From: Pseudoxanthomonas composti
GTDB lineage: Bacteria; Pseudomonadota; Gammaproteobacteria; Xanthomonadales; Xanthomonadaceae
Reading direction: 5' to 3'
DNA: 64,000 bases
NCBI RefSeq assembly: GCF_004122095.1
Contig: NZ_SAWZ01000001.1
Span: forward strand, 682,001-746,000
In this document: piece after piece, positions 40,545-57,332 of the stretch
How the letters are laid out: each line of letters starts with the position of its first letter
Numbering within the stretch: position 1 is the first letter of the stretch
Notes under the pieces: model-generated
What the model saw: the letters and a program-made list of their open reading frames with translations, nothing else
Told to the model about the DNA's origin: nothing
Databases searched by the model: none
Position numbers and translations under genes: made by a program

Positions 40545-40576
40545 CACTCGTTCTCCCGATTGCGTTGTGGAACAAG

Positions 40577-40605
40577 ACGACGCCGCGGATGTGCCGCGGC
40601 GTCGT
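40577..40605 (-). terminator. Strong hairpin ahead of the dipeptidase gene
   Basis: A perfect 12-bp stem ACGACGCCGCGG / CCGCGGCGTCGT with loop ATGTG, extended by an outer GGAAC/GTTCC pair. It is 33 bases before the dipeptidase ATG and may limit readthrough from the receptor gene. Confidence 0.6.
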
Positions 40606-40630
40606 GGTTCCACTTGAAGTATTCCACGTG

Positions 40631-40653
40631 TCGGCCCCGGTGTCCGGGGCCGA
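40631..40653 (-). terminator. Hairpin after the Oar-like receptor gene
   Basis: A perfect 10-bp stem TCGGCCCCGG / CCGGGGCCGA with a 3-base loop lies 13 bases after the receptor stop codon. No clear U run follows. Confidence 0.55.
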
Positions 40654-40665
40654 TGTTGCAGGTCC

Positions 40666-43600
40666 TTACCAGTCGTAGCTGACGGTCAGGCGCGCGTAGC
40701 GCGGGGTCTGATATGCCACCGGCTGGTTCCACAGCGGGTTCTGCGAACCATCGGGCAATTGCGAGAAAGGATAGATATTGCTCGCAGTCTGCTCGTTGGT
40801 AATGTTGAACGCGTCGAAGCGGAAGGCGAGCTTGCCATCGGCGAAGGAAGGCTTGTAGGTCACGCCCAGGTCCAACTGGGCAATCCAGCCCAGGCGGCCA
40901 CGCGAACCCGGGGGCGACGCCTCACCCTCGCCCGTCGCCGGGTTGTAGCAGAAGCGATATGGGCCGCCGGTGATTGCACTGCTGCCATAACCTGCCGGAT
41001 CAGTGCCGGTGTAGTTGTCGCCGTAGTAGTTGCCCAGGCAGGGCCGCGGAGAACCGGAGATCAGGCTGAAGTTGGACGAGGCGCCCCACTCCGGCGTGAA
41101 CTGGTAGTAGCCATACAGTTTCAACTGATGGCGGTGGTCGTTGGACTGATCGCCATTGACGTGCTCCATCAGCGCTGCGTGGTCCCAGCTCTGCGTCGTG
41201 GAAACCGCCGCCTGGCCCTGATAACTTCCGAGCGCACCGCCCGTGCGCCAGAGGTCCGACCGCAGCTGACCCTCGGTCGTGCCGTAGCTGTGTGACCACA
41301 CATAGTTGGCCTTGGCATACCAGGTGCCGTCGAACGGACGCTCGAAGTTGAACTCCAATGCCGAGTAGTTGCGCTTGAAGCGCGGGAACCCGGCCGCTTC
41401 GCGGCTGACGGAGACTTCATGGAACTGCCCATCAGTGCCGATCACGCCCCAGGTGTTGGTCTGGCCAGGATTGATCAGCGCAGCACCGGAGACCTTTGAC
41501 CAATCGATCGTCACGCCTTGCGCGGCTGCAGCCTCGATCAGAGCGGTATTGGAGACGTCATAATTCTGGTCATCAATACCGGCATTCAAGCGACGGTGCG
41601 TCCCACGCACGCCGAAGACCCAGCCACTCTCCAGCTCCTTGGTGAAACCCAAGATGATCTCATCCTGGTTCTCTCCCTCGATGTCCTTGACTACCGCGGT
41701 ACGAACATCGGCGATGCGGCCGAAGCGCGAGTTCGCCGAAACTGCAGAACCGAGCTGCTGGGAGATGATCGGTGTGCCGTCGGAGTTGATGCCGCTATAG
41801 GTAAAGTAAGTGTCGGTACTGATCGCCGGGGTGAACAAACCTACGGGCGACAGCGGCAGGCCGAGGTAGTAGCGGCCAAGGCTGCCATACACCTTCAGAC
41901 TGGAATCGCCGTTTACGTCCCAGCTGAAGCCCAGGCGCGGCGCCCAGGCATCCTTGACCTCGATATAGGGGTCGCCAAAAGGAGTGTAGTTGGTGAACTC
42001 GTCCTTACGCAGGCCGAGGTTGAGCAATAAATTGTCCGTGACTTGCCACTTATCTTCCACGTAGTAGGCACGCTGCTTGGCCTCATAGGAGTACAAGCTG
42101 GTGTTGACCGAGCGAACAACGTAGTAGCCCTGCGAGCCGTAAACCGGATCCACAAGGCCAGGACTCGGTGCACCGACGCCACCCGCCTCGTTGGCCGACT
42201 GGCTCACCAATCCGCCGGTTGTCAGGCCGTAAGGATCGCGTGTCTGACCGTATGTCCAAGAGTATCCAGGTCCGGGCAGGCTGGTACCGATATTGATGCC
42301 TTCAGATTTTTGGTTGTCGATACCGATGCTGGCTGTGTGATCCCCCAGTCGCCACTCCAGATTCAGCCGTAGATTGTCTTTCTCGTAGGCGCGGTCAGAG
42401 GCGGAAATCGGATCGCGGACTTGCTGCCTTCCCGCGATCGTTCCGCCTCCCGTGTAGGCTGGATTCTGCGCATCCGGGTTAATCACTGGACCATTGGCCG
42501 GATCATAATTGAACGGCGTGACCCGGTCCGGTGTGCGCATCTTTCCGTACAGCGCGGTCACTGTCACCGCGTCACCGAAGTAACCGGTGTACTTGGCAGA
42601 GTTCAGTGTGGGACCGGCTTCTTGCGTGGCCTCGTCCGTGTAGTAAGCCAAGCGCTCACGATTCTTGTAGTCGTAGGTATAGATCTGGCCGCCGGTCTCG
42701 GACTTGTCACCAGCACTGGTGAACTCTAGAAAATGGTCATCTGTAATGTACCAGTCCAGCTTGGCATACCAGCGTCGCTGGGTGTATTCGTAATCTGTCC
42801 AACCACGGTTGAGGCCGACGCCGTTTCGCAACAAATTCGCGCCTGCATCGCGATTGCTTAGAACTCGTACGCCGTCGGACTTGACCTCTTCGCCTGCCAA
42901 GAAGAAGAACAGCCTGTCCTGCAGGATTGGCCCGCCCGCATACACACTGTAGGTCGTCTGGTTGGACTCGGCTTCGCTCTGCGGCTGGTATAGCCCATTG
43001 GCCGAACGAGCAAAGTTGTACGCGGTATTGTTCGTGGATGCCGTTTGGCTGTCGGGACGCCAGTAGATGTCGCGCGGCTTGGCACGTAGGCCGTTGGGCT
43101 CCCAGATCACCGCGGCGCCGAACTTCCATTCATTGGTGCCGCGCTTGCCGATCTGATTGATCACGCCGCCGTTGGAACGACCATATTGCGCGCCGTAGCC
43201 ACCGGTGAATATTTCCTGCTGGTCGATGGCGCCATACGGAAGCGTCAGTCCGCCCAGGCTCCGACTCGGATCGGTCGTATTGAAGCCATTGAGGTAGTAA
43301 GCATTCTCCGAGGCAGCCGATCCACCGAAGCTCGCCAGGGAGCCACCGAGGGGTCCATTGTCGAAGCCGCCGGCGTTGTTGACCACGCCCGGCGCCAGCA
43401 GCGCGATGGCTTCGGCGGTGCGGCCCAGCGGCAGCACCGCCAGCTGCTCGGCGGTGATCACGGTGCGCGTATCCACGCTGGTCACGTCGATCGGGCTGAC
43501 GGCTGAGGCGCTCACCGACACGCCGTCCAGCGTCTGCACGCCGGCACCGGCCGCGGTGCCGGCGGCGAAGGACACATCGGTGGCGGCGCCGACGGTAAGG

Positions 43601-43869
43601 CTGATGTTCTCCCGGGTCTCGACCACCTGGCCGTCGCGCTTGACGATGACCTTGTAGGTGCCCAGCGGCAGGTTGGTCGCCGAGTAACGGCCACGCGCAT
43701 CGACCGGGACCTCGCGGCTGAAGCCGCTGTTGTTTTCCAGCAGGACCGTGGTCCCGGCGGTGTCCGCCACGTTACCGACGATGCTGCCGGAGGTGGACTG
43801 CGCATAGGCGCCCTGTACTGCAAACGTCAACGCAAGCGCCAGCGCGCTCTTGCGGATCAGTCGATTCAT
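40666..43869 (-). CDS. Oar-like TonB-dependent receptor with carboxypeptidase-regulatory-like N-domain
   Basis: A 1067-residue outer-membrane receptor. Signal peptide MNRLIRKSALALALTFAVQGAYA; a carboxypeptidase regulatory-like domain at about 25-105 (GSIVGNVADTAGTTVLLENN, then GRYSATNLPLGTYKVIVKRDG); a plug with PLGRTAEAIALLAPGVV; and a long barrel ending RLTVSYDW. The layout is that of Oar/OmpA-related receptors, common in Xanthomonadaceae and linked to protein or peptide use. A dipeptidase gene follows downstream. A 26-bp composite motif at 44060 lies 191 bases upstream. Ligand unknown. Confidence 0.9.
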   Translation of the reverse strand: MNRLIRKSALALALTFAVQGAYAQSTSGSIVGNVADTAGTTVLLENNSGFSREVPVDARGRYSATNLPLGTYKVIVKRDGQVVETRENISLTVGAATDVSFAAGTAAGAGVQTLDGVSVSASAVSPIDVTSVDTRTVITAEQLAVLPLGRTAEAIALLAPGVVNNAGGFDNGPLGGSLASFGGSAASENAYYLNGFNTTDPSRSLGGLTLPYGAIDQQEIFTGGYGAQYGRSNGGVINQIGKRGTNEWKFGAAVIWEPNGLRAKPRDIYWRPDSQTASTNNTAYNFARSANGLYQPQSEAESNQTTYSVYAGGPILQDRLFFFLAGEEVKSDGVRVLSNRDAGANLLRNGVGLNRGWTDYEYTQRRWYAKLDWYITDDHFLEFTSAGDKSETGGQIYTYDYKNRERLAYYTDEATQEAGPTLNSAKYTGYFGDAVTVTALYGKMRTPDRVTPFNYDPANGPVINPDAQNPAYTGGGTIAGRQQVRDPISASDRAYEKDNLRLNLEWRLGDHTASIGIDNQKSEGINIGTSLPGPGYSWTYGQTRDPYGLTTGGLVSQSANEAGGVGAPSPGLVDPVYGSQGYYVVRSVNTSLYSYEAKQRAYYVEDKWQVTDNLLLNLGLRKDEFTNYTPFGDPYIEVKDAWAPRLGFSWDVNGDSSLKVYGSLGRYYLGLPLSPVGLFTPAISTDTYFTYSGINSDGTPIISQQLGSAVSANSRFGRIADVRTAVVKDIEGENQDEIILGFTKELESGWVFGVRGTHRRLNAGIDDQNYDVSNTALIEAAAAQGVTIDWSKVSGAALINPGQTNTWGVIGTDGQFHEVSVSREAAGFPRFKRNYSALEFNFERPFDGTWYAKANYVWSHSYGTTEGQLRSDLWRTGGALGSYQGQAAVSTTQSWDHAALMEHVNGDQSNDHRHQLKLYGYYQFTPEWGASSNFSLISGSPRPCLGNYYGDNYTGTDPAGYGSSAITGGPYRFCYNPATGEGEASPPGSRGRLGWIAQLDLGVTYKPSFADGKLAFRFDAFNITNEQTASNIYPFSQLPDGSQNPLWNQPVAYQTPRYARLTVSYDW

Positions 43870-44059
43870 TGAGCTTGTTCCCCGAGGTGTGAAGTAAGAC
43901 AAGAAGTGCTTGAAACGTCGGTGCAGGCATTGAAGCTGCGATGGGCGACCCCTCGTGAAAGCTACGCGCAAACTCTTCGTCAGCGCCGTGTCATTAACGA
44001 GATATTTCGGAATGTGTCATGCCAGGGCAACAAGATGGCCGTTTGAGGCCGAATTACGA

Positions 44060-45762: not shown

Positions 45763-48510
45763 ATGTCCAAAACGGTTGCACTGATCAACCCACGCCTCGC
45801 GCTGGCACGGGAGACTCTGGCACCTGCCGACTGGATTCTGGCCAACAAGCTCGAGCCGCCGCAGCTGCACGTGGATGCCGTGCCGCGCGCGGGATTGCTC
45901 GACCGGCTCGATGCTGGCCTGACCCTGCCCCTGACCCTGCTGCTGGCCCCGCCGGGCTTCGGCAAGACCACCTTGCTGGCCCAGTGGCAGCAGCGGCTGC
46001 GCGAGCACGACCGTGCCAACGTCGCCTGGCTGTCGATGGACGAGGACGACAGCGAGCCCGGCCGATTCCTGTCCTACCTGGCCCTGGCCGTCACCGCGGC
46101 CTGCGCCGAGCCCGGCAACGCGCTGGGCGGCGCGCCGCACTGGCGCGAGCTGGACGTAGCCACCACGCTGGGCACGCTGTTGCGCGTGGTCCGCACGGCG
46201 GCCAAGCCGCTGGTGCTGATCCTGGACGACTACGACCGCGTGCGCAGCCAGGGCGTGGATGACATCGTGACCCGGCTGGTCGAACACGGCGGCGCGCAGC
46301 TGCACGTCCTGGTGGCCACGCGCCGCGCGCCCTCGCTGCCGCTGGCACGCCTGTCCGTGCGCGGTTGCCTGCAACGGCTGGGCGCGCGCGAGCTGGCGCT
46401 GTCCGACGCCGAGACCCGGCAGCTGCTCGGCCCCGACCTGCCGCTGGAAGACGCGCACCTGCTGCGCGAGCAGACAGAGGGCTGGCCTGTCGCGCTGCAG
46501 TTGGCTGCGCTGTGGATCGCCGGCGATGAGCGCCGGCGCGCCGATGTGGCGCGCTTTTCCGGCCGCTCGGTCGGCCTGGCCGCCTACTTGGCCGAACAAG
46601 TGGTCAGCGACCTGGAGCCGGAGCTGCGCGCGTTCCTGCTGGAAACCTCGTGCCTGGAGCGCTTCAACCCGGCCTTGGCCGATGCCGTGCGCCAGCGCCA
46701 CGACAGCGGCCAGCTGCTGGCGCAGCTGCACCACTTCCAGGGCCTGCTGGTGCCGCTGGACAGCGAGCACGAGTGGTTCCGCTATCACCCCTTGTTCGCC
46801 GATTACCTGCATCTGCAGCTGGAACGCGAGCAGCCCCAGCACACCGGCCTGCTGCATGTGCGCGCCGCGCACTGGTATGCCGGCCAGGGCCAGTTGCTCG
46901 ATGCGGTGCGCCATGCGGTGCGCGCGCAGGACGTGCCGCTGGCCGCGCACTACATCGCCCAGGCCGGCAGCTGGCAGATGCTGCTCAACCACGGCGTGGG
47001 CGGGGTGCGCACCCTGCTGCGCCAGTTCGACGCACGCACCATCCGCGACACTCCCGCGCTGAACCTGACCCAGGCCTACCTGCACATGAAGCTGGGCGAG
47101 TTCAGCCACGCCCAGGTCCTGCTGGAGCGCTTTCGCGATTTCCCGCCCGAGCTCCGCACGCCGCTGGAGCGCGACTACACGGTGGTCGTGGCGCTGCTGC
47201 GCGACCTGCTCGACCAGGTCTGTACCAACCCGCATGGCCTGCCGCAGATCGCTGCCCAGGCCGCGGCGCTGGATGAGGACGACCACGTCGGCCGCGGGAC
47301 CCTGCTGTGCATCTGCGCGACCACGGCACTGGGCCGCTGCGATTTCCCCACTGCCGAGCGCCACGCCCGCAACGCCGAGACGGCGATGCTGCAGGCCGGC
47401 AGCGAGATCGGCGCGGCGTATGCGCTGCTGCACCTGGCGCAGTCGCATTTCTATCGCGGCCAGCTGGACAGGGCCGAACAGGTCTATCGACGCGCACTGG
47501 CGGTTTCGTCCCTGCACCAGGGCGCGGACCCGTCGCTGCATGCGGCCTGCGAAGTGCTGCTGGCGCAGGTGCAGTGCGAACGCGGCCGTTATGACGAGGC
47601 CGCCGACCTGCTGCAGACCTCGCTGGAGATCCTAGAGCAGCACGATGGCTGGCTGGACACTTTCGCCGCGGCCTATTCCACGGCGCTGGCGCTGGCCCGC
47701 CAGCGCGATCGCAGCGGGCGTACCAGCTTCGCCCTGATCGAACATATCGAGACGATCGCGGCCAAGCGCCGCCTGGCGCGCCTGTCCGACCTGGCCGTGG
47801 CCTGGCAGCTGGACGTGCTGCTGGACCTGCCCGGCAACGCGGCCTCGGATGCGGCGATCGGCCGCGCTGGCGGGGAAGCGGCCTTTGCCCATGCCCTGGT
47901 CAACGGCCATGGCTGGCGCCAGGCGGCGGCCCTGGGCTTCGCGCTGGCGCGCTGGCACGCCACGGCGGGGCGCAGCGGCCAGGCCCTGGCGCTGTTGCAC
48001 CAGATCGAAACCCTGGCCGAGCGCCAGCAGGACCAGTACCACCTGATCCGCGCCCGCGCCCGCGTGGCCGTGGTGCAGCACCAGCGCGGCGATCTCGATG
48101 CGGCGGTCAAGGCGCTGCGCGATGTCCTGGACCACACTGCCGGGCAGCACGCGTGGCAGGTGGTGCTGGAGATCGGCCTGCCGGCCAAGGCGCTGCTGCG
48201 TGCGGTGCGACAGCACGACCCGGAGGCGGCCACCGGCACCACGCGCGCACTGACCATCCAGGCGTTGCTGGACAAGCTCTCCGACGAATCGCTGGCCACG
48301 CAGCTGTTCAGCGAGCGCGAGCTGGAAGTGCTGGCGCAGCTGGCGCAGGGCCATTCGAACAAGCAGATCGCCCGCGTGCTCTCGCTGTCGGAGAACACGG
48401 TGAAGTTCCACCTGAAGAATCTTTACCGCAAGCTGGAAGCCGGCACCCGCGAAGCGGCGCTGGCCGCCGCGTTGCAACGCGGCCTGATCACCGCGCGTGG
48501 GGCCAACTGA
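45763..48510 (+). CDS. MalT-type LuxR family transcriptional activator (STAND ATPase)
   Basis: A 915-residue regulator. P-loop APPGFGKTT at residues 62-70 and Walker B LVLILDDYDRV near 148 mark an NB-ARC-like ATPase; a winged-helix and a long TPR-like region (about 300-800) follow; the C-terminal LuxR helix-turn-helix is at about 850-910 (SERELEVLAQLAQGHSNKQIARV, shown here by its first half SERELEVLAQLAQGHS). MalT of E. coli is the model: the sensor region binds an inducer and the protein oligomerises on repeated DNA sites. It has no malT-like maltose genes nearby; the nearest candidates for control are the TonB receptors carrying CTACCC motifs. Confidence 0.9.
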   Translation: MSKTVALINPRLALARETLAPADWILANKLEPPQLHVDAVPRAGLLDRLDAGLTLPLTLLLAPPGFGKTTLLAQWQQRLREHDRANVAWLSMDEDDSEPGRFLSYLALAVTAACAEPGNALGGAPHWRELDVATTLGTLLRVVRTAAKPLVLILDDYDRVRSQGVDDIVTRLVEHGGAQLHVLVATRRAPSLPLARLSVRGCLQRLGARELALSDAETRQLLGPDLPLEDAHLLREQTEGWPVALQLAALWIAGDERRRADVARFSGRSVGLAAYLAEQVVSDLEPELRAFLLETSCLERFNPALADAVRQRHDSGQLLAQLHHFQGLLVPLDSEHEWFRYHPLFADYLHLQLEREQPQHTGLLHVRAAHWYAGQGQLLDAVRHAVRAQDVPLAAHYIAQAGSWQMLLNHGVGGVRTLLRQFDARTIRDTPALNLTQAYLHMKLGEFSHAQVLLERFRDFPPELRTPLERDYTVVVALLRDLLDQVCTNPHGLPQIAAQAAALDEDDHVGRGTLLCICATTALGRCDFPTAERHARNAETAMLQAGSEIGAAYALLHLAQSHFYRGQLDRAEQVYRRALAVSSLHQGADPSLHAACEVLLAQVQCERGRYDEAADLLQTSLEILEQHDGWLDTFAAAYSTALALARQRDRSGRTSFALIEHIETIAAKRRLARLSDLAVAWQLDVLLDLPGNAASDAAIGRAGGEAAFAHALVNGHGWRQAAALGFALARWHATAGRSGQALALLHQIETLAERQQDQYHLIRARARVAVVQHQRGDLDAAVKALRDVLDHTAGQHAWQVVLEIGLPAKALLRAVRQHDPEAATGTTRALTIQALLDKLSDESLATQLFSERELEVLAQLAQGHSNKQIARVLSLSENTVKFHLKNLYRKLEAGTREAALAAALQRGLITARGAN

Positions 48511-48942: not shown

Positions 48943-49401
48943 TCAGCCGTAGGTCAGCGTGCCCTTCATGACCGCCCAGTGGCCGGGGAAGGAGCAGAAG
49001 AAGGTATAGGCCTCCCCCTTCTTGAGCTTGCTGACCGGGAATTTCACCGTGGTGGATTCGCCGCCACCGATCACCTTGGTGTGCGCGATCACCCGGGTAT
49101 CGTCCGCCGGCAGATAACTCTGCGCCAGCGTGGCCTTCATTCCAGCAGTGGCCACGGCCTGGAAGTCGGAGGTCTTGGCCAGCACCCAGTTGTGGCCCAT
49201 GACATTGGCCGCCAGTTTGCCGCTGTGGGTCAGGGTCAGCGCGACCTCGGTGCAGTCGGCGCCCACGGCCAGGGTCGGCTTGTCGAACTTCATCTGGTCG
49301 TTGCCGCTGATGCTCAGCGCGCAGGTCTTGGCCCATGCGCCTGGCGCCAGGAAAACGGCCGCCACCAGGACCAGGGCGGCAGTGAAACGCGAGTACTTCA
49401 A
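48943..49401 (-). CDS. azu: Azurin (type 1 blue copper protein)
   Basis: A 152-residue precursor of the periplasmic electron carrier azurin. All copper-site residues are present: His in NVMGHNWVL, Cys, His and Met in FFCSFPGHWAVMKGTL; the disulfide cysteines and SGNDQMKFD core also match. A Sec signal (TAALVLVAAVFLAPGAWA) precedes the mature chain. The best start is TTG at 49401 behind GGAG, since no ATG or GTG fits before the signal. It is the last gene of the leftward amine-oxidation cluster, 41 bases after the aminotransferase, and may take electrons from the cytochrome c encoded there. Confidence 0.93.
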   Translation of the reverse strand: MKYSRFTAALVLVAAVFLAPGAWAKTCALSISGNDQMKFDKPTLAVGADCTEVALTLTHSGKLAANVMGHNWVLAKTSDFQAVATAGMKATLAQSYLPADDTRVIAHTKVIGGGESTTVKFPVSKLKKGEAYTFFCSFPGHWAVMKGTLTYG

Positions 49402-49442
49402 AACGAACTCCAGGGTCGGTCTAGGGAAAGGAACGCCAGGCC

Positions 49443-50651
49443 TCAGGCCAGGTGCAAGCTGCCATCGCGGCGTTCGCTCAGCGCGGCCATCTGCGGCTTT
49501 GGCGGCACCGGGCCCAGCTTGCCCGCCGCGACCTGGGCGAAGGCTTGCTTGAAACGCTGCATCTCCTCGGCAGTGCCGATGGTGATGCGCGAGGAGTTGG
49601 GCCACACCGGCCAGCTGCGGCCGACATACACGCCCCAGGTCGCCATGTCGGCCATGAAGGCTTTGGCCGGGCGCTTCACATCGACCATGAAGCAATTGCT
49701 TTCCGACGTCGTGCAGGTGAAGCCCTTCGACTCGAGGAAGGCGATGGTGTCTTTGCGAATGGCGGTATTGGCGCTGCGACGCTGCGGCACCAGCTGCGGA
49801 TCGCGCAGGCTGGCCAGTCCGGCCGCCGCGGCGGTCACCGGCAGACTGTTCATGCTGAAGTACTGCAGCTTCTTCAGCAGATCCGGGCGCGCCACGGCGT
49901 AGCCCAGGCGAATGCCGGCCATCCCGTAGAGCTTGGAGAACGTGCGCAGGATCACCACGTCCTCGCCCTTGGCCACCATGTCCACCGCGCTCACGGCGCT
50001 GTCGGAGAAGTGGATGTAGGCCTCGTCCACCACCAGTACGCTGCCCTTGGGCTTGTGCGCCAGGGCGTAGTCCAGGTCCTTGCGAGTGGTGATCGAGCCG
50101 GTGGGGTTGTTCGGGTTGCAGATGTAAATGACGCCCGCCTTGGGATCGGCCGCGCACATGGCCTGCACGTCGTGGCTGAAGTCCTTGCGCAGCGGGATCT
50201 TGTGCACCGGCGCCTGCTTGCGTGCCGCCGCGCCCCAGCCCTGCTCGAAGGTGGGATCGGCGGTGACCAGCGAGGCCTCCGGCGAGGTGAAGGCCAGCAT
50301 CGTGTAGTCCAGCGGCTCGGTCGAACCGGCATACAGCATGATGTTGTCCGGCTTGACGCCCAGCTGGTCGGCCAGCTCCTGTCGCAGCTCCATCTGCAGC
50401 TCGATCAGGTAACGACCGCCCTGGGGGGTGATCTCGGCCATGGCCTTGCGTGCGGCCGCCGAGGGGCCCTGCGGCGACTCGTTGGCATTGATCAGCACCG
50501 GGCTCAGGCCGGCGCCGACCTGGCCGGCCGCATCCTGCGCGGCCGCGGCCGGAGCCGTGGCCACGCCCAGCAGTGGAGCGCCCACCGTGGCCGCGCCTGC
50601 GGCCAGGGCGGAATGACGAAGGAAATCACGACGCGAGATCGAGGCTTTCAT
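49443..50651 (-). CDS. Tat-exported HisC-like PLP aminotransferase
   Basis: A 402-residue class I/II aminotransferase carrying a twin-arginine signal (MKASISRRDFLRHSALAAGA, followed by an Ala-rich h-region). PLP residues are complete: NPNNPTGSIT near residue 179, DEAYIHF near 209 and the Schiff-base lysine K240 in FSKLYGMAGIRLGY. The N-terminal NANESPQGPS resembles histidinol-phosphate aminotransferases. Export with a bound cofactor fits the Tat route, since PLP is inserted in the cytoplasm. It lies between exported RidA and azurin genes. Its substrate is probably the amine or keto acid handled by the neighbouring oxidase, not histidinol phosphate. Confidence 0.88.
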   Translation of the reverse strand: MKASISRRDFLRHSALAAGAATVGAPLLGVATAPAAAAQDAAGQVGAGLSPVLINANESPQGPSAAARKAMAEITPQGGRYLIELQMELRQELADQLGVKPDNIMLYAGSTEPLDYTMLAFTSPEASLVTADPTFEQGWGAAARKQAPVHKIPLRKDFSHDVQAMCAADPKAGVIYICNPNNPTGSITTRKDLDYALAHKPKGSVLVVDEAYIHFSDSAVSAVDMVAKGEDVVILRTFSKLYGMAGIRLGYAVARPDLLKKLQYFSMNSLPVTAAAAGLASLRDPQLVPQRRSANTAIRKDTIAFLESKGFTCTTSESNCFMVDVKRPAKAFMADMATWGVYVGRSWPVWPNSSRITIGTAEEMQRFKQAFAQVAAGKLGPVPPKPQMAALSERRDGSLHLA

Positions 50652-50678
50652 GCGGTGCACTCCACGTGCGATGACAGG

Positions 50679-51182
50679 TCAGGGACGGACGGCGACGACT
50701 TCGATCTCGATGCGGTAGGCCGGATTGGCCAGCGCGGCGATCTGGAAGGCCGAGCGCGCCGGCAGGTTCATCTGCTTGGCGTCCTTGCCGAAGAACTTGG
50801 TGTAGCTCTTCATGAAACCTGCGAAATCCATCTTGCCGTCGGTCTCCGGGCCACCGACCATGAAGACCTGCATCTTCACCACGTCCTTCATGTCCAGGCC
50901 CATGCCCTGCAGCTGCTTCTGGATGTCGCTGAGCACGCTCATCGCCTGCACTTCGGTATCGCCGTAGGCTTCCAGCGAATCCTTCGGCTTGGACGCGTCG
51001 ACCACGTGCGGGGTCTTGCCGCTGACATACACGGTGGTCTTGCCGGCTGGCACTTCCACCGCCGCGGCGATCGGGAAGTCGCTGCCGGGAATGCCGTGGC
51101 GCTTGACCTCGGCCGCCTGCGACAGCAGCGGCAGGCTCAGCGCGGCGCAGGTCATCAGGGCGGCGGCTTTGGACATCTTCAT
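50679..51182 (-). CDS. Sec-exported RidA/YjgF-family protein
   Basis: A 167-residue RidA-fold protein with an N-terminal signal (MTCAALSLPLLSQA-AE). The imine/enamine deaminase arginine is kept in LPARSAFQIAAL, and the closing strand YRIEIEVVAV carries the usual Glu. Cytosolic RidA is about 128 residues; the extra length is the signal peptide. RidA hydrolyses reactive imines released by PLP enzymes and by flavin amine oxidases, both of which are encoded next to it and exported. It ends 28 bases before the aminotransferase start. Confidence 0.88.
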   Translation of the reverse strand: MKMSKAAALMTCAALSLPLLSQAAEVKRHGIPGSDFPIAAAVEVPAGKTTVYVSGKTPHVVDASKPKDSLEAYGDTEVQAMSVLSDIQKQLQGMGLDMKDVVKMQVFMVGGPETDGKMDFAGFMKSYTKFFGKDAKQMNLPARSAFQIAALANPAYRIEIEVVAVRP

Positions 51183-51248
51183 GTAGGTTTACTCCAGTGC
51201 TTGGGTGGTGTCGCGTGGGTCTGGCTCGGCGCTGCGGCAGGCGGCGCG

Positions 51249-51719
51249 TCAGTCGGTGTCGTCGTGGGCGGCCACGTTGACGCCGCGCAGCGCCTTGACG
51301 TCCTCAAGGCTCAGCGGATCGCTGTAGCTGTTGCCGAAGTGGGTGCGGACGTAGTCGGCGATCTCGACCACCTGCTTGTCAGTGAGCATGCCACGGAAGC
51401 CGGGCATGGCGCCGTTGCCGTCCAGCACCATCATCGCCACGTACGGGCCCGCGGCCAGTTTGGGGTTGTCGGCTAGGGCCGGATACTCGCCGCCGCCCTT
51501 GGCCCCCTCGCCCTTGGCCATGTGGCAGCCCTGGCAAATGGTCGTGTAGATCTGGGGGCCGCTGGCGCTGGAGAAGTCCGGGCCTTCGAAGAAGCCGGTC
51601 GCATCCGAGGTCTGCGCCTGCACCGGCGCGGTGAGCAGGCCCGGCGCCGCCAGCGCGCCGGCGAGGGACAGCACCGCCAGCCCGCGACGCAGCCAGCGGC
51701 GATCGTGTGCAGTATTCAT
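51249..51719 (-). CDS. Periplasmic class I cytochrome c
   Basis: A 156-residue precursor with a basic n-region and signal (LAVLSLAGALAAPGLLTAPVQA). One haem site CQGCH near residue 62 and the axial Met in GAMPGFRGML; a C-terminal helix VVEIADYVRTHFG is typical of small class I cytochromes. Its ATG overlaps the stop codon of the flavin oxidase gene (ATGA), so the two are translationally coupled. In Pseudomonas putida NicA2, a Tat-exported flavin amine oxidase, passes electrons to a co-encoded cytochrome c (CycN); this pair has the same form. Confidence 0.92.
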   Translation of the reverse strand: MNTAHDRRWLRRGLAVLSLAGALAAPGLLTAPVQAQTSDATGFFEGPDFSSASGPQIYTTICQGCHMAKGEGAKGGGEYPALADNPKLAAGPYVAMMVLDGNGAMPGFRGMLTDKQVVEIADYVRTHFGNSYSDPLSLEDVKALRGVNVAAHDDTD

Positions 51720-53326
51720 GCGGCACCTCCCGTGGCCATGACCTTCTTGTGCAGCCGGCCGATCATGTCGTGCGCCGAGAGGATGGCGCCCTCCTGCCAG
51801 GCCGGGATGTAGGAGATGTGCTCGCCCGCCATGGCGATGCGGCCGTCGATCTGCGTGGCCGCGCCGTAATAGCGCTCGCGCAGCTGCTCGGTCCACTGGC
51901 CGAAGCAGCCATGCGTCCACGGCACGCGGTGCCAACCCACCGACACACCGTTGTCGAACTCCTGCTTGTACTGCGGATGGATCTGCGAACCGTACTCGAC
52001 CGCCTTGCGCACGCGCTCTTCCGGCGTATGCGAGGTGTAGTCGAACGCGTTCAGGCCCCAGATATAGGCGCCCAGCAGCACGCCCTTGCCCGGGCTGTGA
52101 TAGTCGGTGCTGGGATAGCTGATGGTGGTGATCGGCAGGTTGGTGTAGCTGATACCGCCGTAGATGGCCTCGTCCTCTTCCCAGAAGCGGCGCTTGAACT
52201 GCAGGCCGACCTTCACCGAGGCCGCGTAGGGCAGCTTGGTGATGGCCTCGGCCATCTCGGCGCCGACCTTGACCGGGATGCGGCTGAGCACCGAGAACGG
52301 AATCGTGCAAACGCACCAGTCGGCCTTGGCGGTCTTGGCCTTGCCGGGGGCGGTGGTGTCCTCGTAGGTGACGGTGACGCCGCGCTCGTCCTGGTCGATC
52401 TCGGTCACACGCGCGTTGTACTCGATCACGCCCGGGCCCAGCTCACGCGCGAAGGCCTTGCCGATCTGGTCCATGCCGCCGACCGGCTGGAACATGGTCG
52501 TCTGCATCTCGTAGTTGTTGCCGGCGGCCAGGGTGGCCCACAAGCGCGAGCGCAGGATGTCCTCCACGCGCATCGGCTTGGAGTGCTCGGGCTTGCCGGA
52601 CACGCCGCCGCCCGGATACTTGGCGAAACCGCGGCGCACGCTGCTCTCCTCGCCCATCACGTAGGACAGGTTGCGATCCAGCGCGCCCCAGTTGCGCAGC
52701 GATTCCAGCAGGATCTCCTGGTCCTCCTTGGTCACGGCCTTGTCCAGCGCGCCCTGCTTGGTGCTCTTGGCCAGCAGCTCGGAGATATGACCCTTGTAGT
52801 CGGCGTCGATCTCGCGGAATCGCTTGGGTTGGCCACCGAAGGCCTCGGTGTTGTGCAGGAAGGCGTTGAAGTTGACCTGGACGAAGGATTCCAGCGGCAC
52901 CTTGAACTGCTTGCAGTAGGACAGCACCGCGCGGTGGTGGTGCGGGATGCGCCACGGGCCGGGGTTGATGTACAGGTTCTTGTCGAAGCCGCAGTGCTGG
53001 GTGGCACCGCCCAGCTCGGTATAGGTATCGCCGCCGTGGATGGACCAGTTGCGGCCGCCGGGGCGTGCGTTGAACTCCAGGATCTTGACCTTGTAGCCGG
53101 CCTTGCGCAGCTCGTAGGCGGCGGTCATGCCGGCCAGTCCTGCGCCCAGCACCAGCACCGTGGCCCCCTTGGGGCTGCCTTGCAGTTTGACCGGCCCGGT
53201 GTAGCTGGATTCGGCCGCCATGCCCAAGCTGGTCATGGCCTGATACATCATCGCGCCGCCTGCCGACAGGCCGATGCGGCCCAGCAGCTGACGGCGCGTC
53301 AGTGCGACACCCGTGTTGTCTTGCAT
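51716..53326 (-). CDS. Tat-exported flavin amine oxidase/dehydrogenase
   Basis: A 536-residue FAD enzyme of the monoamine oxidase superfamily. The N-terminus is a Tat signal (LTRRQLLGRIGLSAGGAMM). The FAD site is VLVLGAGLAGMTAAYELRKAG (GxGxxG) then LEFNARPGGRNWS near residue 80, and the closing FAD motif is RIAMAGEHISYIPAWQEGA. Internal blocks GGATQHCG and TMFQPVGGMDQIGKAF match L-amino-acid and monoamine oxidases. It is followed with a 4-base overlap by a cytochrome c gene, implying that it is a dehydrogenase for that cytochrome. Substrate (a primary amine or amino acid) unknown. Confidence 0.92.
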   Translation of the reverse strand: MQDNTGVALTRRQLLGRIGLSAGGAMMYQAMTSLGMAAESSYTGPVKLQGSPKGATVLVLGAGLAGMTAAYELRKAGYKVKILEFNARPGGRNWSIHGGDTYTELGGATQHCGFDKNLYINPGPWRIPHHHRAVLSYCKQFKVPLESFVQVNFNAFLHNTEAFGGQPKRFREIDADYKGHISELLAKSTKQGALDKAVTKEDQEILLESLRNWGALDRNLSYVMGEESSVRRGFAKYPGGGVSGKPEHSKPMRVEDILRSRLWATLAAGNNYEMQTTMFQPVGGMDQIGKAFARELGPGVIEYNARVTEIDQDERGVTVTYEDTTAPGKAKTAKADWCVCTIPFSVLSRIPVKVGAEMAEAITKLPYAASVKVGLQFKRRFWEEDEAIYGGISYTNLPITTISYPSTDYHSPGKGVLLGAYIWGLNAFDYTSHTPEERVRKAVEYGSQIHPQYKQEFDNGVSVGWHRVPWTHGCFGQWTEQLRERYYGAATQIDGRIAMAGEHISYIPAWQEGAILSAHDMIGRLHKKVMATGGAA

Positions 53327-53552
53327 GAAATTCGTCTTCTTCTGGCGAGCCGCCGCCTGTTCCGCGGGCGACGGCTCGAACTGCGTGGTCCGCACCCCGT
53401 GGCGCTGTCCTCCCTTCCTCGGAAAGATGCCTCGGGCTGGTCTTCGGTTGCCGGTGAAGTATCCGCCACCGCCCCGCCCGCCGCGCCTGGCGCGAGGGGT
53501 GGGTGGGTCGCCGATGGGTAGGGGCGCCCGGTCGGGCGCCCCGGTCAGCCCA
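53327..53552. other. Gap between receptor and oxidase genes with hairpin
   Basis: A 226-base region holding a perfect hairpin GGGGCGCCCG-GT-CGGGCGCCCC (53521-53542) 10 bases after the receptor stop, without a U run. It could attenuate transcription into the oxidase operon or protect the receptor transcript. A separate oxidase promoter may lie near 53340-53480. Confidence 0.5.
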
Positions 53553-56282
53553 TCAGAAGCGGTAGGACACCTTGGCGTAGTAACGCGCACCGAAGTAGCC
53601 GATCGGGCTGCTGGTCAGGTACTCGTTGTTGCCGTTCTGGTAGTTGGCCACGTCGTAGTTCCACACCGCGGACGGGATCTTGTCCGGGTACTTGTTGAAC
53701 ACGTTGTCGCCGCCCACGCTCAGGGTCCAGCGGTCGTCCGGACGGAAGCTCAGGTCGAAACCAGTGAGCGCCATCGTGCCGATCTCCTGCTTGTAGTAGC
53801 GACCGCCATCCAGGGTGACCAAGTCCAGCTGGTCGGCGAACTGCTCATAGCCGGCCAGGCTGGCCACGGTGTACTGCGGCCCATAGATGGACTCGCGCAG
53901 GGTCAGGCTGAACTTCTCCCAGTTGAAGGTGGCCGCCAGGTTGACGCGGTAGCGCGGGCTGTTGTGCTCGATGTCCGAGATCGCCGCCGGGGTGAACATC
54001 GGGATGCTTTCGAAGCCCGGCGCGCGGCCGGCGCGGGTGACCTCGGTCTTGTTGTAGTTGGCCGCCAGCAGCCAGTCGATCGAACCCCACTCGAACGGGG
54101 TCATGTAGTTGGTCACCCAGTCCACGCCGGTGGTCTTGGTGTCCAGCACGTTGCTGAAGAAGCTCAGGTCGATGTTGGCGCGCGCGGTCTGGTCGAAGCT
54201 GCCGCCCGGGGCCGAGGGGTCGTTGGCGTCGCTGATGAAGCCGCCCGCCACCAGGGCCGCACCAAGGATCGGGTCGTAGTTGTCATCCGGCACGCCATCG
54301 CCGTTGGTATCGGCCGGATCGGGCAGGTCGGCGTTCCAGGTACCGGTGTTGCGGCCGGTACGAGTCGCGGCAGACTGAGCGGTGGAGTAGCTGAAAGAGC
54401 CGATGTAGGTGCGGTCCTTGATCTTGATCTGGTAGGCATCCAGGGTCATGGTCAGGTTTTCGAGCGGGCGGAACACCAGGCCCAGCGAGAGGTTCTGGCT
54501 GGTCTCCGGCTTCAGGCCGTTGCCGACCGTGGCGCCGGCCAGGGTGGCGGTGGCGCCGGTCGGGCTGACCTGGATGGCCGAGTAGTACTGCTCGCCCATG
54601 TTCGGCGCACGGAAGCCGGTGCTGACGGTGCCGCGCAGGGCCAGGGCGTCGGAGAAATCGTAGCGCGTGGTCAACTTGCCCACGGCCTTGTCGCCGAAGT
54701 CGCTGTAGTCCTCGTAACGACCTGCCAGATCGACCAGCCACTTGTCGGTCGGGTTGAAGATGGCGTCGGCGAACACGGCGTAGCTATGACGCGAGTAGTC
54801 GCCGGTGCCCAGCGGGTTGTAGCCCGGGAAGGACGAGGCGCCGGCGCCGTAGTAGGAGGCCGGCTCGCCCGGCTCGATGCCGTAGCCATCGCGCTTGTAC
54901 TCCACGCCGGCGTTGAAGGTCATCGGCCGCGCCAGGCCGATCTCGAAATCCTTGGTGACGGCGAAGTCGGTGGTCCACTGGGTCGAATAGAACGTACCGT
55001 CGTAGAAGTCGGTCGGCGATGCGCCGGTGTCCTGCCACAGCGAGAAGTTCATCGAGTTGATCGTGTACACGTCCATCTCGTTGCGGCCGTAGCTGGTGGA
55101 CGCATCCCAGGACCAGTCGCCGAAGTAGCCCTTCAGGCCGGCGGTCAGGTCGTAATCGGTCTCGTCCGACGCCTCGGAAGGATGGAAACCGTAGGGATAC
55201 TTGTGCTTGACCTCGCCGGTGATCGGGTCGACATAGCCGCCGTCCTGCGAGGGACGACGGTAGTTTTCCTCGGACTCGGCGGTCTTCTTGCCGTAGCTGC
55301 CGAAGGCGTAGAACTCCAGGCCATCGCCGAAGTCGTAGCCGGCGTTGAAGGACATGATCTTGCGATGCACTTCTGGCGGGTTGAGCCAGCCGTTCAAGGC
55401 AGGGAAGCGCGGGTTCATCAGCGCGCCCTGGTCGTTTTCCAGACGGCTGATCAGATCGCTACGGCCATTGGCCACCGCATAGCTGCGGCAAGCGGCCTGG
55501 TCGAGCAGGCAGTTGGCATAGCTGGGATTGGAGAAGCGGAAAACCGACTTGCGGTTTTCGACCTCGGCGCTGAGGCTGACGAAGCCGTTGTCGCCACCCA
55601 GGCCCAGGTTGGCGCTCCAGTTGTCGGTGCCGCCACCACCATCGGCAAAACCCGCATAGCCGGCATTGAATTCGCCGCCGTCGCTGTTCTTCTTCAGGAT
55701 GATGTTGATGACGCCGGCGATGGCGTCAGAACCGTACAGTGCGGCGGCGCCGTCGGTCAGCACTTCGATGTGGTCGATGGCCGACTGCGGGATGTAGGAC
55801 AGGTCGGTGGCCATTTCGCCATTGGCGGCCACGGCGAAGTTGGAAGTGACGTGGCGGCGCTTGCCGTTGACCAGGATCAGCGTGTGGTTGGCCGTCAGCG
55901 AACGCAGGCTGGCGTTGAGGGTCTGGCTGGCCATGTCGCCACCGGTCTGGGTGGCGTTGTAGGAGGGAATCTGATTGGCGATGGCGTTCTGCAGGTCCGG
56001 CGCGGCCGAGCGCTTGAGCAGTTCGGGGGTCACCACCTGGATCGGCGCCGGGCTGTCGCTGACGGCCATGTCCATCTTGCGTGTGCCGGTGGAGATCACC
56101 GTGACGTTGTCGAGCGTCTTGGCCTCGTCCTTGACGTCATCGGCCGCGTAGGCCTGCCCGGCGGCGCCCGCGGTCAGCAGCAGGGCCAGGGAAGCGGTCC
56201 GCAGACCGGAGGCATGACGAATTCCATGTACCGCTGCCGAGACAGCGTTGGAGAGCTGGCAGGACCTGATGGGCTTGCGCAT
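53553..56282 (-). CDS. TonB-dependent receptor of the amine-oxidation cluster
   Basis: A 909-residue outer-membrane receptor. A long N-terminal region with a signal (SLALLLTAGAAGQAYA-AD), TonB box-like NVTVISTGTRK near residue 60, plug with LQNAIANQIPSYNATQ and DHIEVLTDGAAALYGSDAIAGVINIILKK, then a barrel ending YYAKVSYRF. It belongs to the large group of receptors without a known siderophore partner. It lies upstream of the exported amine oxidase operon in the same direction, so it may import the substrate. A CTACCC composite motif lies 159 bases upstream. Start at 56282 with GAGG upstream. Confidence 0.92.
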   Translation of the reverse strand: MRKPIRSCQLSNAVSAAVHGIRHASGLRTASLALLLTAGAAGQAYAADDVKDEAKTLDNVTVISTGTRKMDMAVSDSPAPIQVVTPELLKRSAAPDLQNAIANQIPSYNATQTGGDMASQTLNASLRSLTANHTLILVNGKRRHVTSNFAVAANGEMATDLSYIPQSAIDHIEVLTDGAAALYGSDAIAGVINIILKKNSDGGEFNAGYAGFADGGGGTDNWSANLGLGGDNGFVSLSAEVENRKSVFRFSNPSYANCLLDQAACRSYAVANGRSDLISRLENDQGALMNPRFPALNGWLNPPEVHRKIMSFNAGYDFGDGLEFYAFGSYGKKTAESEENYRRPSQDGGYVDPITGEVKHKYPYGFHPSEASDETDYDLTAGLKGYFGDWSWDASTSYGRNEMDVYTINSMNFSLWQDTGASPTDFYDGTFYSTQWTTDFAVTKDFEIGLARPMTFNAGVEYKRDGYGIEPGEPASYYGAGASSFPGYNPLGTGDYSRHSYAVFADAIFNPTDKWLVDLAGRYEDYSDFGDKAVGKLTTRYDFSDALALRGTVSTGFRAPNMGEQYYSAIQVSPTGATATLAGATVGNGLKPETSQNLSLGLVFRPLENLTMTLDAYQIKIKDRTYIGSFSYSTAQSAATRTGRNTGTWNADLPDPADTNGDGVPDDNYDPILGAALVAGGFISDANDPSAPGGSFDQTARANIDLSFFSNVLDTKTTGVDWVTNYMTPFEWGSIDWLLAANYNKTEVTRAGRAPGFESIPMFTPAAISDIEHNSPRYRVNLAATFNWEKFSLTLRESIYGPQYTVASLAGYEQFADQLDLVTLDGGRYYKQEIGTMALTGFDLSFRPDDRWTLSVGGDNVFNKYPDKIPSAVWNYDVANYQNGNNEYLTSSPIGYFGARYYAKVSYRF

Positions 56283-56466: not shown

Positions 56467-56760
56467 GGTCGAACAGCACTCAGCAAGGCGCCACGCAACT
56501 ACCCAGCTCCGCTCGCACGATTACGCTTGCAGCACATGCGCTCACCCCATTGGAGAAGGTTTCATACGCATCGATTTGGACGCATCCGAGGCGAGCAATG
56601 CCGGTGCGGGGAGCGGGGCAACGCTCGGTTTGCGTCGATGCGCGTGCGTGCCTGGGTGAGGCGCCTGTTCGTGCATGCGCGGCCACGCGCTTTGTGGACA
56701 AGGCCAGCGCACGTACGTGCCGTGTAGCGTCGCAGTGAGCCTCTGATCCGATGCTTGAGG
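56467..56760. other. Intergenic stretch between receptor promoter and repeat array
   Basis: About 290 bases with no supported gene. It is rich in GCATGCGC-type words and holds the isolated CTACCCAG site at its left edge. Frames on both strands are short and Arg/Ala-rich. Confidence 0.4.
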
Positions 56761-57332
56761 CGGTGGACAAGCTTCGCGTTGTCCACCCTACGGCGGGATT
56801 GCGCGGGGTGGACAACGCCGAAGCCTTTTCTACACACCGCATCGCCGTGCGCCGCTGGCGCGGTGGACAAGCTTCGCGTTGTCCACCCTACGGCGGGATT
56901 GCGTGGGGCGGACAATGGCGAAGCCTTTTCCGCACACCGCATCGCCACGAGCGCCTGACGCGGTGGACAAGCTTCGCGTTGTCCACCCTACGGTGGGATT
57001 GCGTGGGGTGGACAACGGCGAAGCCTTTTCCGCACACCGCATCGCCACGAGCCTGACGCGGTGGACAAGCTTCGCGTTGTCCACCCTACGGCGGGATTGC
57101 GCGGGGTGGACAACGGCGAAGCCTTTTCTACACACCGCATCGCCGTGAGCCCCTGGCGCGGTGGACAAGCTTCGCGTTGTCCACCCTGCGGCTGGATTGC
57201 GTGGGGTGGACAATGGCGAAGCCTTTTCTACACACCGCATCGCCGTGCACCTCTGGCGTGGTGGACAAGCTTCGCGTTTTCCACCCTACGAAGGGATTGC
57301 GTAGGGTGGAAAACGGCGAAGCCTTTTCCACC
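56761..57332. repeat. Tandem array of six ~100-bp palindromic units
   Basis: Units start at 56761, 56861, 56961, 57059, 57159 and 57259; five are 98-100 bases and the last is about 74. Each begins GGTGGACAAGCTTCGCGTTG then TCCACCCTACG, followed by GGATTGCG, GGGGTGGACAA and GCGAAGCCTTTT, and a less conserved CACACCGCATCGCC tail. Each unit therefore contains a GGTGGACAA/TTGTCCACC hairpin and an overlapping GTCCACCC/GGGTGGAC pairing. The last unit differs in both arms together (TTTTCCACCCTACG with CGTAGGGTGGAAAA, a 14-bp perfect pair). Confidence 0.92.

What the first reader, a model, noticed from the sequence alone, without database searches (positions are those of the whole stretch)
48943..56282. 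Complete periplasmic amine-oxidation module: TonB receptor, Tat flavin amine oxidase, cytochrome c, exported RidA, Tat aminotransferase, azurin
Six leftward genes encode proteins that all leave the cytoplasm, by three routes: outer-membrane receptor (Sec), flavin amine oxidase (Tat), cytochrome c (Sec), RidA (Sec), PLP aminotransferase (Tat), azurin (Sec). The oxidase stop overlaps the cytochrome c start. Known precedent: NicA2 of Pseudomonas putida, a Tat-exported flavin amine oxidase, uses a co-encoded cytochrome c as acceptor. Inference: this is a periplasmic amine or amino-acid dehydrogenase system with its own electron path (FAD to cytochrome c to azurin), its own imine detoxifier and a transaminase, fed by a dedicated outer-membrane receptor. 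To my knowledge such a set with both RidA and a PLP enzyme outside the cytoplasm is not a described pathway.
Basis: partly seen in the sequence, partly recalled or inferred. Interest (0 to 1): 0.85.

Follow-up and report, generated by a model that had tools for sequence, protein, structure and literature searches.

The report
Exported L-amino-acid dehydrogenase operon, extended
A bacterium related to Xanthomonas carries an operon that most likely takes electrons and ammonia from L-amino acids outside its inner membrane; the core of it is already known from a plant endophyte, and what looks new is an exported transaminase and a linked regulator.

Summary
The six genes are there as described, with export-type N-termini. 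The 'amine oxidase' is not NicA2-like: by sequence and fold it is closest to the L-amino acid oxidase of Rhodococcus opacus (37% identity), so an L-amino-acid enzyme is expected. The core lao-cytochrome c-ridA is described: lao-cccA-ridA of Gluconacetobacter diazotrophicus (PMC5053998), needed there for tryptophan-to-auxin conversion. Tat signal plus adjacent cytochrome c predicts a cytochrome-using dehydrogenase (PMC12224317, shown for another lineage). Among 80 related loci cytochrome c adjoins lao in 80 and RidA in 64. The exported PtaA-like aminotransferase adjoins it in 30 of 34 Lysobacterales-type loci and 0 of 46 others. The receptor differs between lineages. Verdict: new variant of a known kind; mechanism inferred.

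The parts
53553..56282 (-). TonB-dependent outer-membrane receptor
   Evidence: PF00593 + PF07715; of 80 loci, same-type receptor upstream of the oxidase in 5, a different type in 24, single other types in 2, one downstream, none found in 32, flank too short in 16
51716..53326 (-). Tat-type flavin L-amino acid oxidoreductase (Lao); twin-Arg at residues 11-12
   Evidence: PF01593; best PDB match 2jae E 1e-89, best fold match 2jae TM 0.74/0.82; R126, K372, Y421, W510 invariant in 27 aligned sequences, window included
51249..51719 (-). Sec-type class I cytochrome c (CQGCH), start overlaps lao stop
   Evidence: PF13442/PF00034; adjoins lao in 80 of 80 loci, CxxCH in 80 of 80
50679..51182 (-). Sec-type Rid imine deaminase, Rid3-like by nearest structures
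   Evidence: PF01042; nearest PDB 9bka PSPTO_3006 and 9bkc PFL_1385, both Rid3 in PMC5619798
49443..50651 (-). Tat-type PLP aminotransferase, PtaA/HisC-like
   Evidence: NCBIfam PRK09105 566 bits (cut-off 444), PtaA 427 (cut-off 500, not reached); beside lao in 30 of 34 Lysobacterales-type loci and 0 of 46 others, 3 of these with too short a flank
48943..49401 (-). azurin (TTG start); resident of the argD-hemL locus, membership in the system not shown
   Evidence: TIGR02695 190 bits, cut-off 105; beside hemL without lao in at least 12 genomes
45763..48510 (+). MalT-type LuxR regulator (AAA, TPR, GerE), convergent with azurin; probable regulator of the operon
   Evidence: domains; in 19 of 20 genomes with the operon and 1 of 178 without; near lao in 30 of 34 Lysobacterales-type loci and 0 of 46 others

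Best explanation
A periplasmic L-amino-acid dehydrogenase operon, TBDT-lao-cytC-ridA-aminotransferase, probably under the adjoining MalT-type LuxR. Lao oxidises L-amino acids to imino acids and passes the electrons to its co-encoded cytochrome c and so to the respiratory chain, not to oxygen. The exported Rid protein hydrolyses the imine to the 2-oxo acid and ammonia before it can damage PLP. The exported aminotransferase, in the same compartment, uses the 2-oxo acids as amino acceptors, which both regenerates its PLP and lets Lao deaminate, by way of its preferred amino acid, amino compounds it cannot take directly. Shown: gene content, order, family membership, export-type N-termini, conservation. 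Precedent in print: disruption of the core operon stops Trp-to-IAA conversion in G. diazotrophicus. Inferred: cytochrome as acceptor here, substrate, the transaminase's partner and the regulator's target.
For: Lao is closest to L-amino acid oxidases by sequence and by fold (from a model of moderate confidence, mean pLDDT 68). Positions aligned with roLAAO Arg84 and Tyr371 (roles recalled) are R126 and Y421, invariant in 27 aligned sequences. Cytochrome c adjoins lao in 80 of 80 loci and RidA in 64 of 80. In a study that characterised 25 flavin amine oxidoreductases, Tat signal plus adjacent cytochrome c predicted dehydrogenases (PMC12224317). In G. diazotrophicus lao insertions abolish IAA, and the authors cite cytochrome c maturation mutants with 5% IAA (PMC5053998). 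Rid3 proteins, the nearest structures, remove imines made by an L-amino acid oxidase (PMC5619798). Rid proteins protect PLP enzymes (PMC4433059). Aminotransferase beside lao in 17 of 20 operon genomes of the family, two of them as fragments.
Against: No biochemistry on this clade was found. roLAAO is regarded as an oxidase, and the Lys equivalent to the N5-side Lys linked to oxygen use seems present (K372; equivalence by recalled motif), though NicA2 and Pnao keep it too. The Tat-plus-cytochrome rule was shown for NicA2-related lineages, so its use here is an extension. The G. diazotrophicus insertions also lowered cccA and ridA expression and were not complemented, so the phenotype belongs to the cluster. 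The aminotransferase is missing in 3 of 20 operon genomes and in all 43 testable non-Lysobacterales loci, so the core works without it. RidA is absent beside lao in 15 of 80 loci, 1 more has too short a flank (in L073 a rid gene lies upstream of the receptor instead). In one paralogue of this genome (L087:4330-5934) Y421 is Phe. The position aligned with roLAAO Trp426 (recalled) is variable. Orthology with GDI2456 itself was not tested.
Confidence: 0.68

Rival explanations
1. Tryptophan-to-auxin operon: Lao makes indole-3-pyruvate from L-Trp, as in G. diazotrophicus, and the aminotransferase helps or reverses that step.
For: The same core cluster is needed for IAA in G. diazotrophicus, whose authors report the organisation as conserved in Caulobacter and Xanthomonas (PMC5053998); many record names are of genera known as plant-associated (recalled).
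Against: No indole-pyruvate decarboxylase among the genes classified here; the R. opacus enzyme takes 39 of 43 tested L-amino acids (stated in PMC5053998). Habitats of the holders were not examined.
Confidence: 0.2
2. Tailoring system: the aminotransferase, like PtaA on pyoverdine, converts a glutamyl or similar residue of a small peptide or siderophore handled by the TonB receptor, and Lao/RidA supply keto acid acceptors.
For: Closest named equivalog is PtaA (427 bits); PtaA acts in the periplasm on a siderophore and was proposed to serve other pathways (PMC6206403); a TonB receptor heads the operon.
Against: PtaA cut-off not reached; no peptide synthetase among the genes I classified (not searched for elsewhere); receptor type not conserved.
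Confidence: 0.12
3. Ordinary secreted L-amino acid oxidase making hydrogen peroxide, with a bystander cytochrome c.
For: The closest structures are named oxidases.
Against: Cytochrome c adjoins lao in 80 of 80 loci, with overlapping frames in the window; Tat plus cytochrome c predicts dehydrogenase in related lineages (PMC12224317).
Confidence: 0.12
4. First reader's full six-gene module with azurin as a dedicated electron carrier.
For: Azurin adjoins the operon in 19 of 20 operon genomes of the family and follows the aminotransferase by 41 nt with no terminator-like site in the gap.
Against: Azurin lies 5-355 bp from hemL (between match ends) in at least 12 family genomes without the operon, is in 119 of 198 genomes, and is missing beside the operon in Pseudoxanthomonas spadix and sp. 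GM95 (L007, L008) and in G134.
Confidence: 0.15

Closest known systems
lao-cccA-ridA operon of Gluconacetobacter diazotrophicus PAL5 (GDI2456-2454; PMC5053998)
   Same: Tat-type, roLAAO-like L-amino acid oxidase with cytochrome c and Rid genes in one operon
   Different: Window adds an exported PtaA-like aminotransferase, a TonB receptor and a MalT-type LuxR; no phenotype known here; sequences not compared
NicA2-CycN-Pnao of Pseudomonas putida S16 and other cytochrome-using flavin amine dehydrogenases (PMC9396064, PMC12224317)
   Same: Tat flavin amine oxidoreductase with adjacent Sec cytochrome c
   Different: Other lineage and expected substrate class: window enzyme is closest to L-amino acid oxidases, and has Rid and aminotransferase partners
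Chlamydomonas periplasmic LAO1 with LAO2/RidA (PMC10805672)
   Same: Extracytoplasmic L-amino acid oxidase paired with a Rid protein
   Different: Eukaryotic, reported to make H2O2; no cytochrome c or aminotransferase partner mentioned in the passages read
PtaA, periplasmic transaminase of Pseudomonas fluorescens (PMC6206403)
   Same: Tat-exported PLP aminotransferase; NCBIfam PtaA model scores 427 bits
   Different: Below the PtaA cut-off of 500; other gene neighbourhood
L-amino acid oxidase of Rhodococcus opacus (PDB 2jae)
   Same: 37% identity over 470 aligned residues, best fold match, Arg84 and Tyr371 equivalents kept
   Different: Regarded as an oxidase; Trp426 equivalent is Phe here (residue roles recalled)

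Membership tests
lao-cccA-ridA operon | roLAAO-like flavoenzyme with Tat-type signal | tested here: met
lao-cccA-ridA operon | cytochrome c and rid genes adjacent on the same strand | tested here: met
lao-cccA-ridA operon | sequence orthology with GDI2456-2454 | not tested
   the G. diazotrophicus sequences were not fetched
lao-cccA-ridA operon | required for amino-acid (Trp) conversion | not testable with these tools
   needs a mutant
cytochrome c-using flavin amine dehydrogenases | Tat signal plus adjacent Sec cytochrome c | tested here: met
cytochrome c-using flavin amine dehydrogenases | slow with O2, fast with own cytochrome c | not testable with these tools
   needs stopped-flow kinetics
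NicA2/Pnao lineage | closest relatives are nicotine or amine dehydrogenases | tested here: not met
   the best 16 PDB sequence matches (5ts5 is named amine oxidase there and L-amino acid oxidase) and the best 21 fold matches are L-amino acid oxidases, L-glutamate and L-lysine oxidases included
PtaA equivalog | score above NCBIfam cut-off 500 | tested here: not met
   427 bits; subfamily PRK09105 met at 566, cut-off 444
Rid imine deaminase (Rid3-like) | active-site Arg (Arg105 of RidA) | tested here: met
   the PAR motif of the window protein aligns with that of PSPTO_3006 and PFL_1385; that this is the catalytic Arg is recalled. By a regular expression 56 of 65 related Rid proteins have the motif; of the 9 others L021 is a truncated frame and 8 were not examined
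azurin as part of the system | present at this place only with the operon | tested here: not met

The most novel reading that the evidence does not exclude
A complete periplasmic transdeamination cycle: an exported PLP transaminase funnels amino groups to a cytochrome-linked L-amino-acid dehydrogenase that deaminates them, while an exported Rid protein guards the transaminase's PLP from the imines, so that amino acids are stripped of nitrogen and electrons before their carbon enters the cell.
Probability: 0.25. Interest if true: 0.62.

Novelty: new variant of a known kind. Interest (0 to 1): 0.42.

Why it matters
It would place a further lineage (L-amino acid oxidase type) among flavin amine oxidoreductases that feed the respiratory chain by cytochrome c. 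It would also give an exported PLP transaminase a local source of amino acceptor and a local imine guard; how the cofactor is regenerated outside the cytoplasm is left open in the pyoverdine review (PMC6206403). It offers one testable regulator for the operon.

Tried and rejected
NicA2 as precedent by family: rejected as lineage, kept as mechanism. Azurin as module part: not borne out by synteny. A dedicated receptor: weakened, since the receptor type differs between lineages. A single clean origin of the operon aminotransferase: the tree needs two changes of the label, and a long-branched stand-alone group (L088, L112, L113) falls among the operon copies, so no claim is made. Promoter and terminator scan: no promoter-like site (1.0 expected), 3 terminator-like sites against 5.4 expected; the two on the operon's strand lie inside the azurin frame; uninformative. 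PMC9368920 (passages) predicts a Fur box before a nuo-lao gene set in G. diazotrophicus; not used. Searches of print for the extended operon: (listings); no listed title or abstract start joins an exported aminotransferase to lao; one search served the Rid proteins, PtaA. PMC5979572 and the other listed papers were seen in listings only.

Slips corrected: one search used an azurin query one base out of frame; its hits are ignored and one search replaces it (that query starts six codons inside the signal peptide). The first counts for cytochrome c and RidA used a faulty position filter and are replaced; its aminotransferase, azurin and LuxR counts agree. The dipeptidase query was out of frame, its stops written as X; replaced.
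Full report
Anatomy. The window is G000:C1:682001-746000 of a 4.33 Mb genome in 24 contigs; the best related loci are Pseudoxanthomonas. Reading leftwards: TonB-dependent receptor 56282-53553, flavin amine oxidoreductase 53326-51716, cytochrome c 51719-51249 whose ATG overlaps the oxidase stop, Rid protein 51182-50679, aminotransferase 50651-49443, azurin 49401-48943 from a TTG with GGAG before it. The oxidase and the aminotransferase have twin-arginine N-termini; the others have Sec-type ones, judged by eye and a crude hydropathy count. On the other strand, convergent with azurin, lies a MalT-type LuxR gene (45763-48510; AAA, TPR and GerE domains), then hemL; argD (NCBIfam) lies upstream of the receptor.

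What the oxidase is. Its best PDB match is the L-amino acid oxidase of Rhodococcus opacus (2jae, E 1e-89), 176 identities over 470 aligned residues. The next 15 matches are ancestral, snake-venom, glutamate and fungal L-amino acid oxidases; monoamine oxidase comes 17th. A model (mean pLDDT 68, so moderate) finds the same: 2jae first, TM 0.74/0.82, and L-amino acid oxidases, L-glutamate and L-lysine oxidases included, in the first 21 ranks. The Arg and Tyr that bind the substrate carboxylate in roLAAO (Arg84, Tyr371; recalled; the chain index is one lower) align with R126 and Y421. Both are invariant in 27 aligned sequences, as are K372 and W510; with the two further paralogues of this genome added, Y421 is Phe in one (L087:4330-5934) and the other three stay invariant in 29. 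The position aligned with roLAAO Trp426 (recalled) is Phe here and varies (Ala 13, Phe 12, Tyr 3, Ser 1 of 29). So an L-alpha-amino acid is the expected substrate; which one is not known. NicA2 is a mechanistic parallel, not the nearest relative.

Prior art. The core is described. In Gluconacetobacter diazotrophicus, lao (Tat signal, roLAAO-like), cccA and ridA form a cluster; Tn5 insertions in lao abolish IAA and leave Trp largely unused, with expression of cccA and ridA lowered too and no complementation. The authors cite cytochrome c maturation mutants with 5% IAA, suggest that the three proteins work together, suggest a periplasmic place for Lao, and report the organisation as conserved in Caulobacter and Xanthomonas (PMC5053998; abstract and passages). 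Chlamydomonas has a periplasmic LAO1 with LAO2/RidA (PMC10805672; passages). Tat plus adjacent cytochrome c was found, in a study that characterised 25 enzymes, to predict cytochrome-using dehydrogenases among NicA2-related sequences (PMC12224317; abstract, passages and discussion); what I read of it does not treat the L-amino acid oxidase lineage, and a word search for RidA gave 0. PMC9396064 (passages) gives the NicA2-CycN-Pnao case. PtaA is a Tat-exported PLP transaminase (PMC6206403; passages). My literature searches listed no paper seen to join an exported aminotransferase to lao; most subscription journals are not held.

Conservation. The search for related loci kept the best 80 of 170 confirmed relatives. 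Cytochrome c adjoins lao in 80 of 80. RidA adjoins it in 32 of 34 Lysobacterales-type loci (33 with such names, plus one Gammaproteobacteria MAG, L040) and 32 of 46 others (13 absent, 1 flank too short). The aminotransferase adjoins it in 30 of 34 and 0 of 46 (3 flanks too short); azurin in 29 of 34 and 0 of 46 (6 too short). The LuxR is near it in 30 of 34 and 0 of 46. Some frames are short or broken (aminotransferase in L018, L020, L034; lao in L021 and L025; rid in L021). By five receptor queries, four of them taken from these loci, the receptor upstream is of the window's type in 5 loci, of a different type in 24, of single other types in 2 and downstream in 1; 32 have none and 16 have too little flank. 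A receptor next to lao thus recurs in some lineages, but not the same one.

Family survey. In 198 family genomes lao (E up to 1e-100) occurs in 22, of which 20 are at least 70% identical; two of these (G200, G145) have one stop inside. None of the 8 other genomes of the genus in that set has it. Of the 20, 17 have the aminotransferase beside lao (G279 and G295 as fragments; not G134, G164, G246) and 19 azurin (not G134). In the order, 10 of 121 genomes have lao at E up to 1e-60. This set overlaps with the 80 loci (for example G164 and L009 share a contig length). The operon is therefore patchy.

Azurin and LuxR. Azurin is in 119 of 198 genomes. In at least 12 genomes without lao it lies 5-355 bp from hemL, measured between match ends (the hemL table was cut, so 12 is a lower bound). 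In L089 and L090 the order argD-azurin-hemL is seen without lao, luxR or aminotransferase; L091 shows hemL-azurin at a contig end; five other azurin loci looked at (L092-L096, one of them the second azurin of this genome) have no hemL beside them. So azurin belongs to the place, not demonstrably to the operon. The LuxR behaves the other way: E up to 1e-80 in 20 of 198 genomes, 19 of them among the 20 lao genomes (18 beside the operon, of which G200 in part only; G279 on another contig next to hemL; G295 without) and one, G111 at 31% identity, without lao. Fisher p is 3e-24, not corrected for kinship. In G134, where the operon lacks aminotransferase and azurin, the LuxR still stands beside it at 42% identity (L097). 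It is the best candidate regulator; no test of regulation was possible.

Rid and transaminase. The nearest solved structures of the Rid protein are PSPTO_3006 and PFL_1385, assigned to Rid3 in PMC5619798 and shown there to remove imines that an L-amino acid oxidase makes from Leu, Gln, Phe, Met and His (passages). Rid proteins pre-empt damage to PLP enzymes by 2-aminoacrylate (PMC4433059; passages). A PLP enzyme encoded directly behind rid and exported to the same compartment as an imine producer makes sense in that light; this is inference. The tree of aminotransferases does not give one clean operon clade.

How it most likely works. L-amino acid enters by a porin or the receptor; Lao reduces its FAD and releases the imino acid; electrons go one by one to the cytochrome c and on to the respiratory chain; Rid makes the 2-oxo acid and ammonia; the aminotransferase exchanges amino groups with these 2-oxo acids. 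Every step after the gene content is inferred here, with the precedents named above.

Scale of novelty. The core is known and each part is known; the exported transaminase and the LuxR are the addition. I score it as a new variant of a known kind.

Noticed in passing
L087 4327-8880 (G000:C18, about 250326-254879): Second lao locus in the same genome: two further Lao paralogues with a cytochrome c between them (an order like nicA2-cycN-pnao), a divergent rid gene, and an S9/DPPIV-type peptidase at L087 1320-3731.
   Followed up: partly
L088 6780-8006 (G000:C18): Stand-alone Tat-type aminotransferase, 55% identical to the operon copy; no lao within the 16 kb fetched.
   Followed up: partly
window 56756-57331: Tandem array of a 100-bp unit, 5.7 copies, with GGTGGACAA/TTGTCCACC motifs, between the receptor start and argD.
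   Followed up: no
window 39276-43971: M19 membrane dipeptidase with an export-type N-terminus by eye, and a large receptor-like protein (TonB-receptor-like by eye, not classified by any search) beside hemL; the latter recurs near hemL in 29 of 34 Lysobacterales-type loci. Could supply free amino acids.
   Followed up: no
L018, L020, L021, L034, L025: Short or interrupted aminotransferase, lao or rid frames in some Xanthomonas and one MAG: decay of the operon in places, or assembly errors. Described only.
   Followed up: no
L038: Record named Mycobacterium sp. KBS0706 carries a lao-cytochrome c-rid set much like the Inquilinus loci L041 and L042 in the N-termini; the name may be wrong or the contig foreign.
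   Followed up: no
G111:C1:61180-63858: Only LuxR match at E below 1e-80 in a genome without lao, 31% identical.
   Followed up: no
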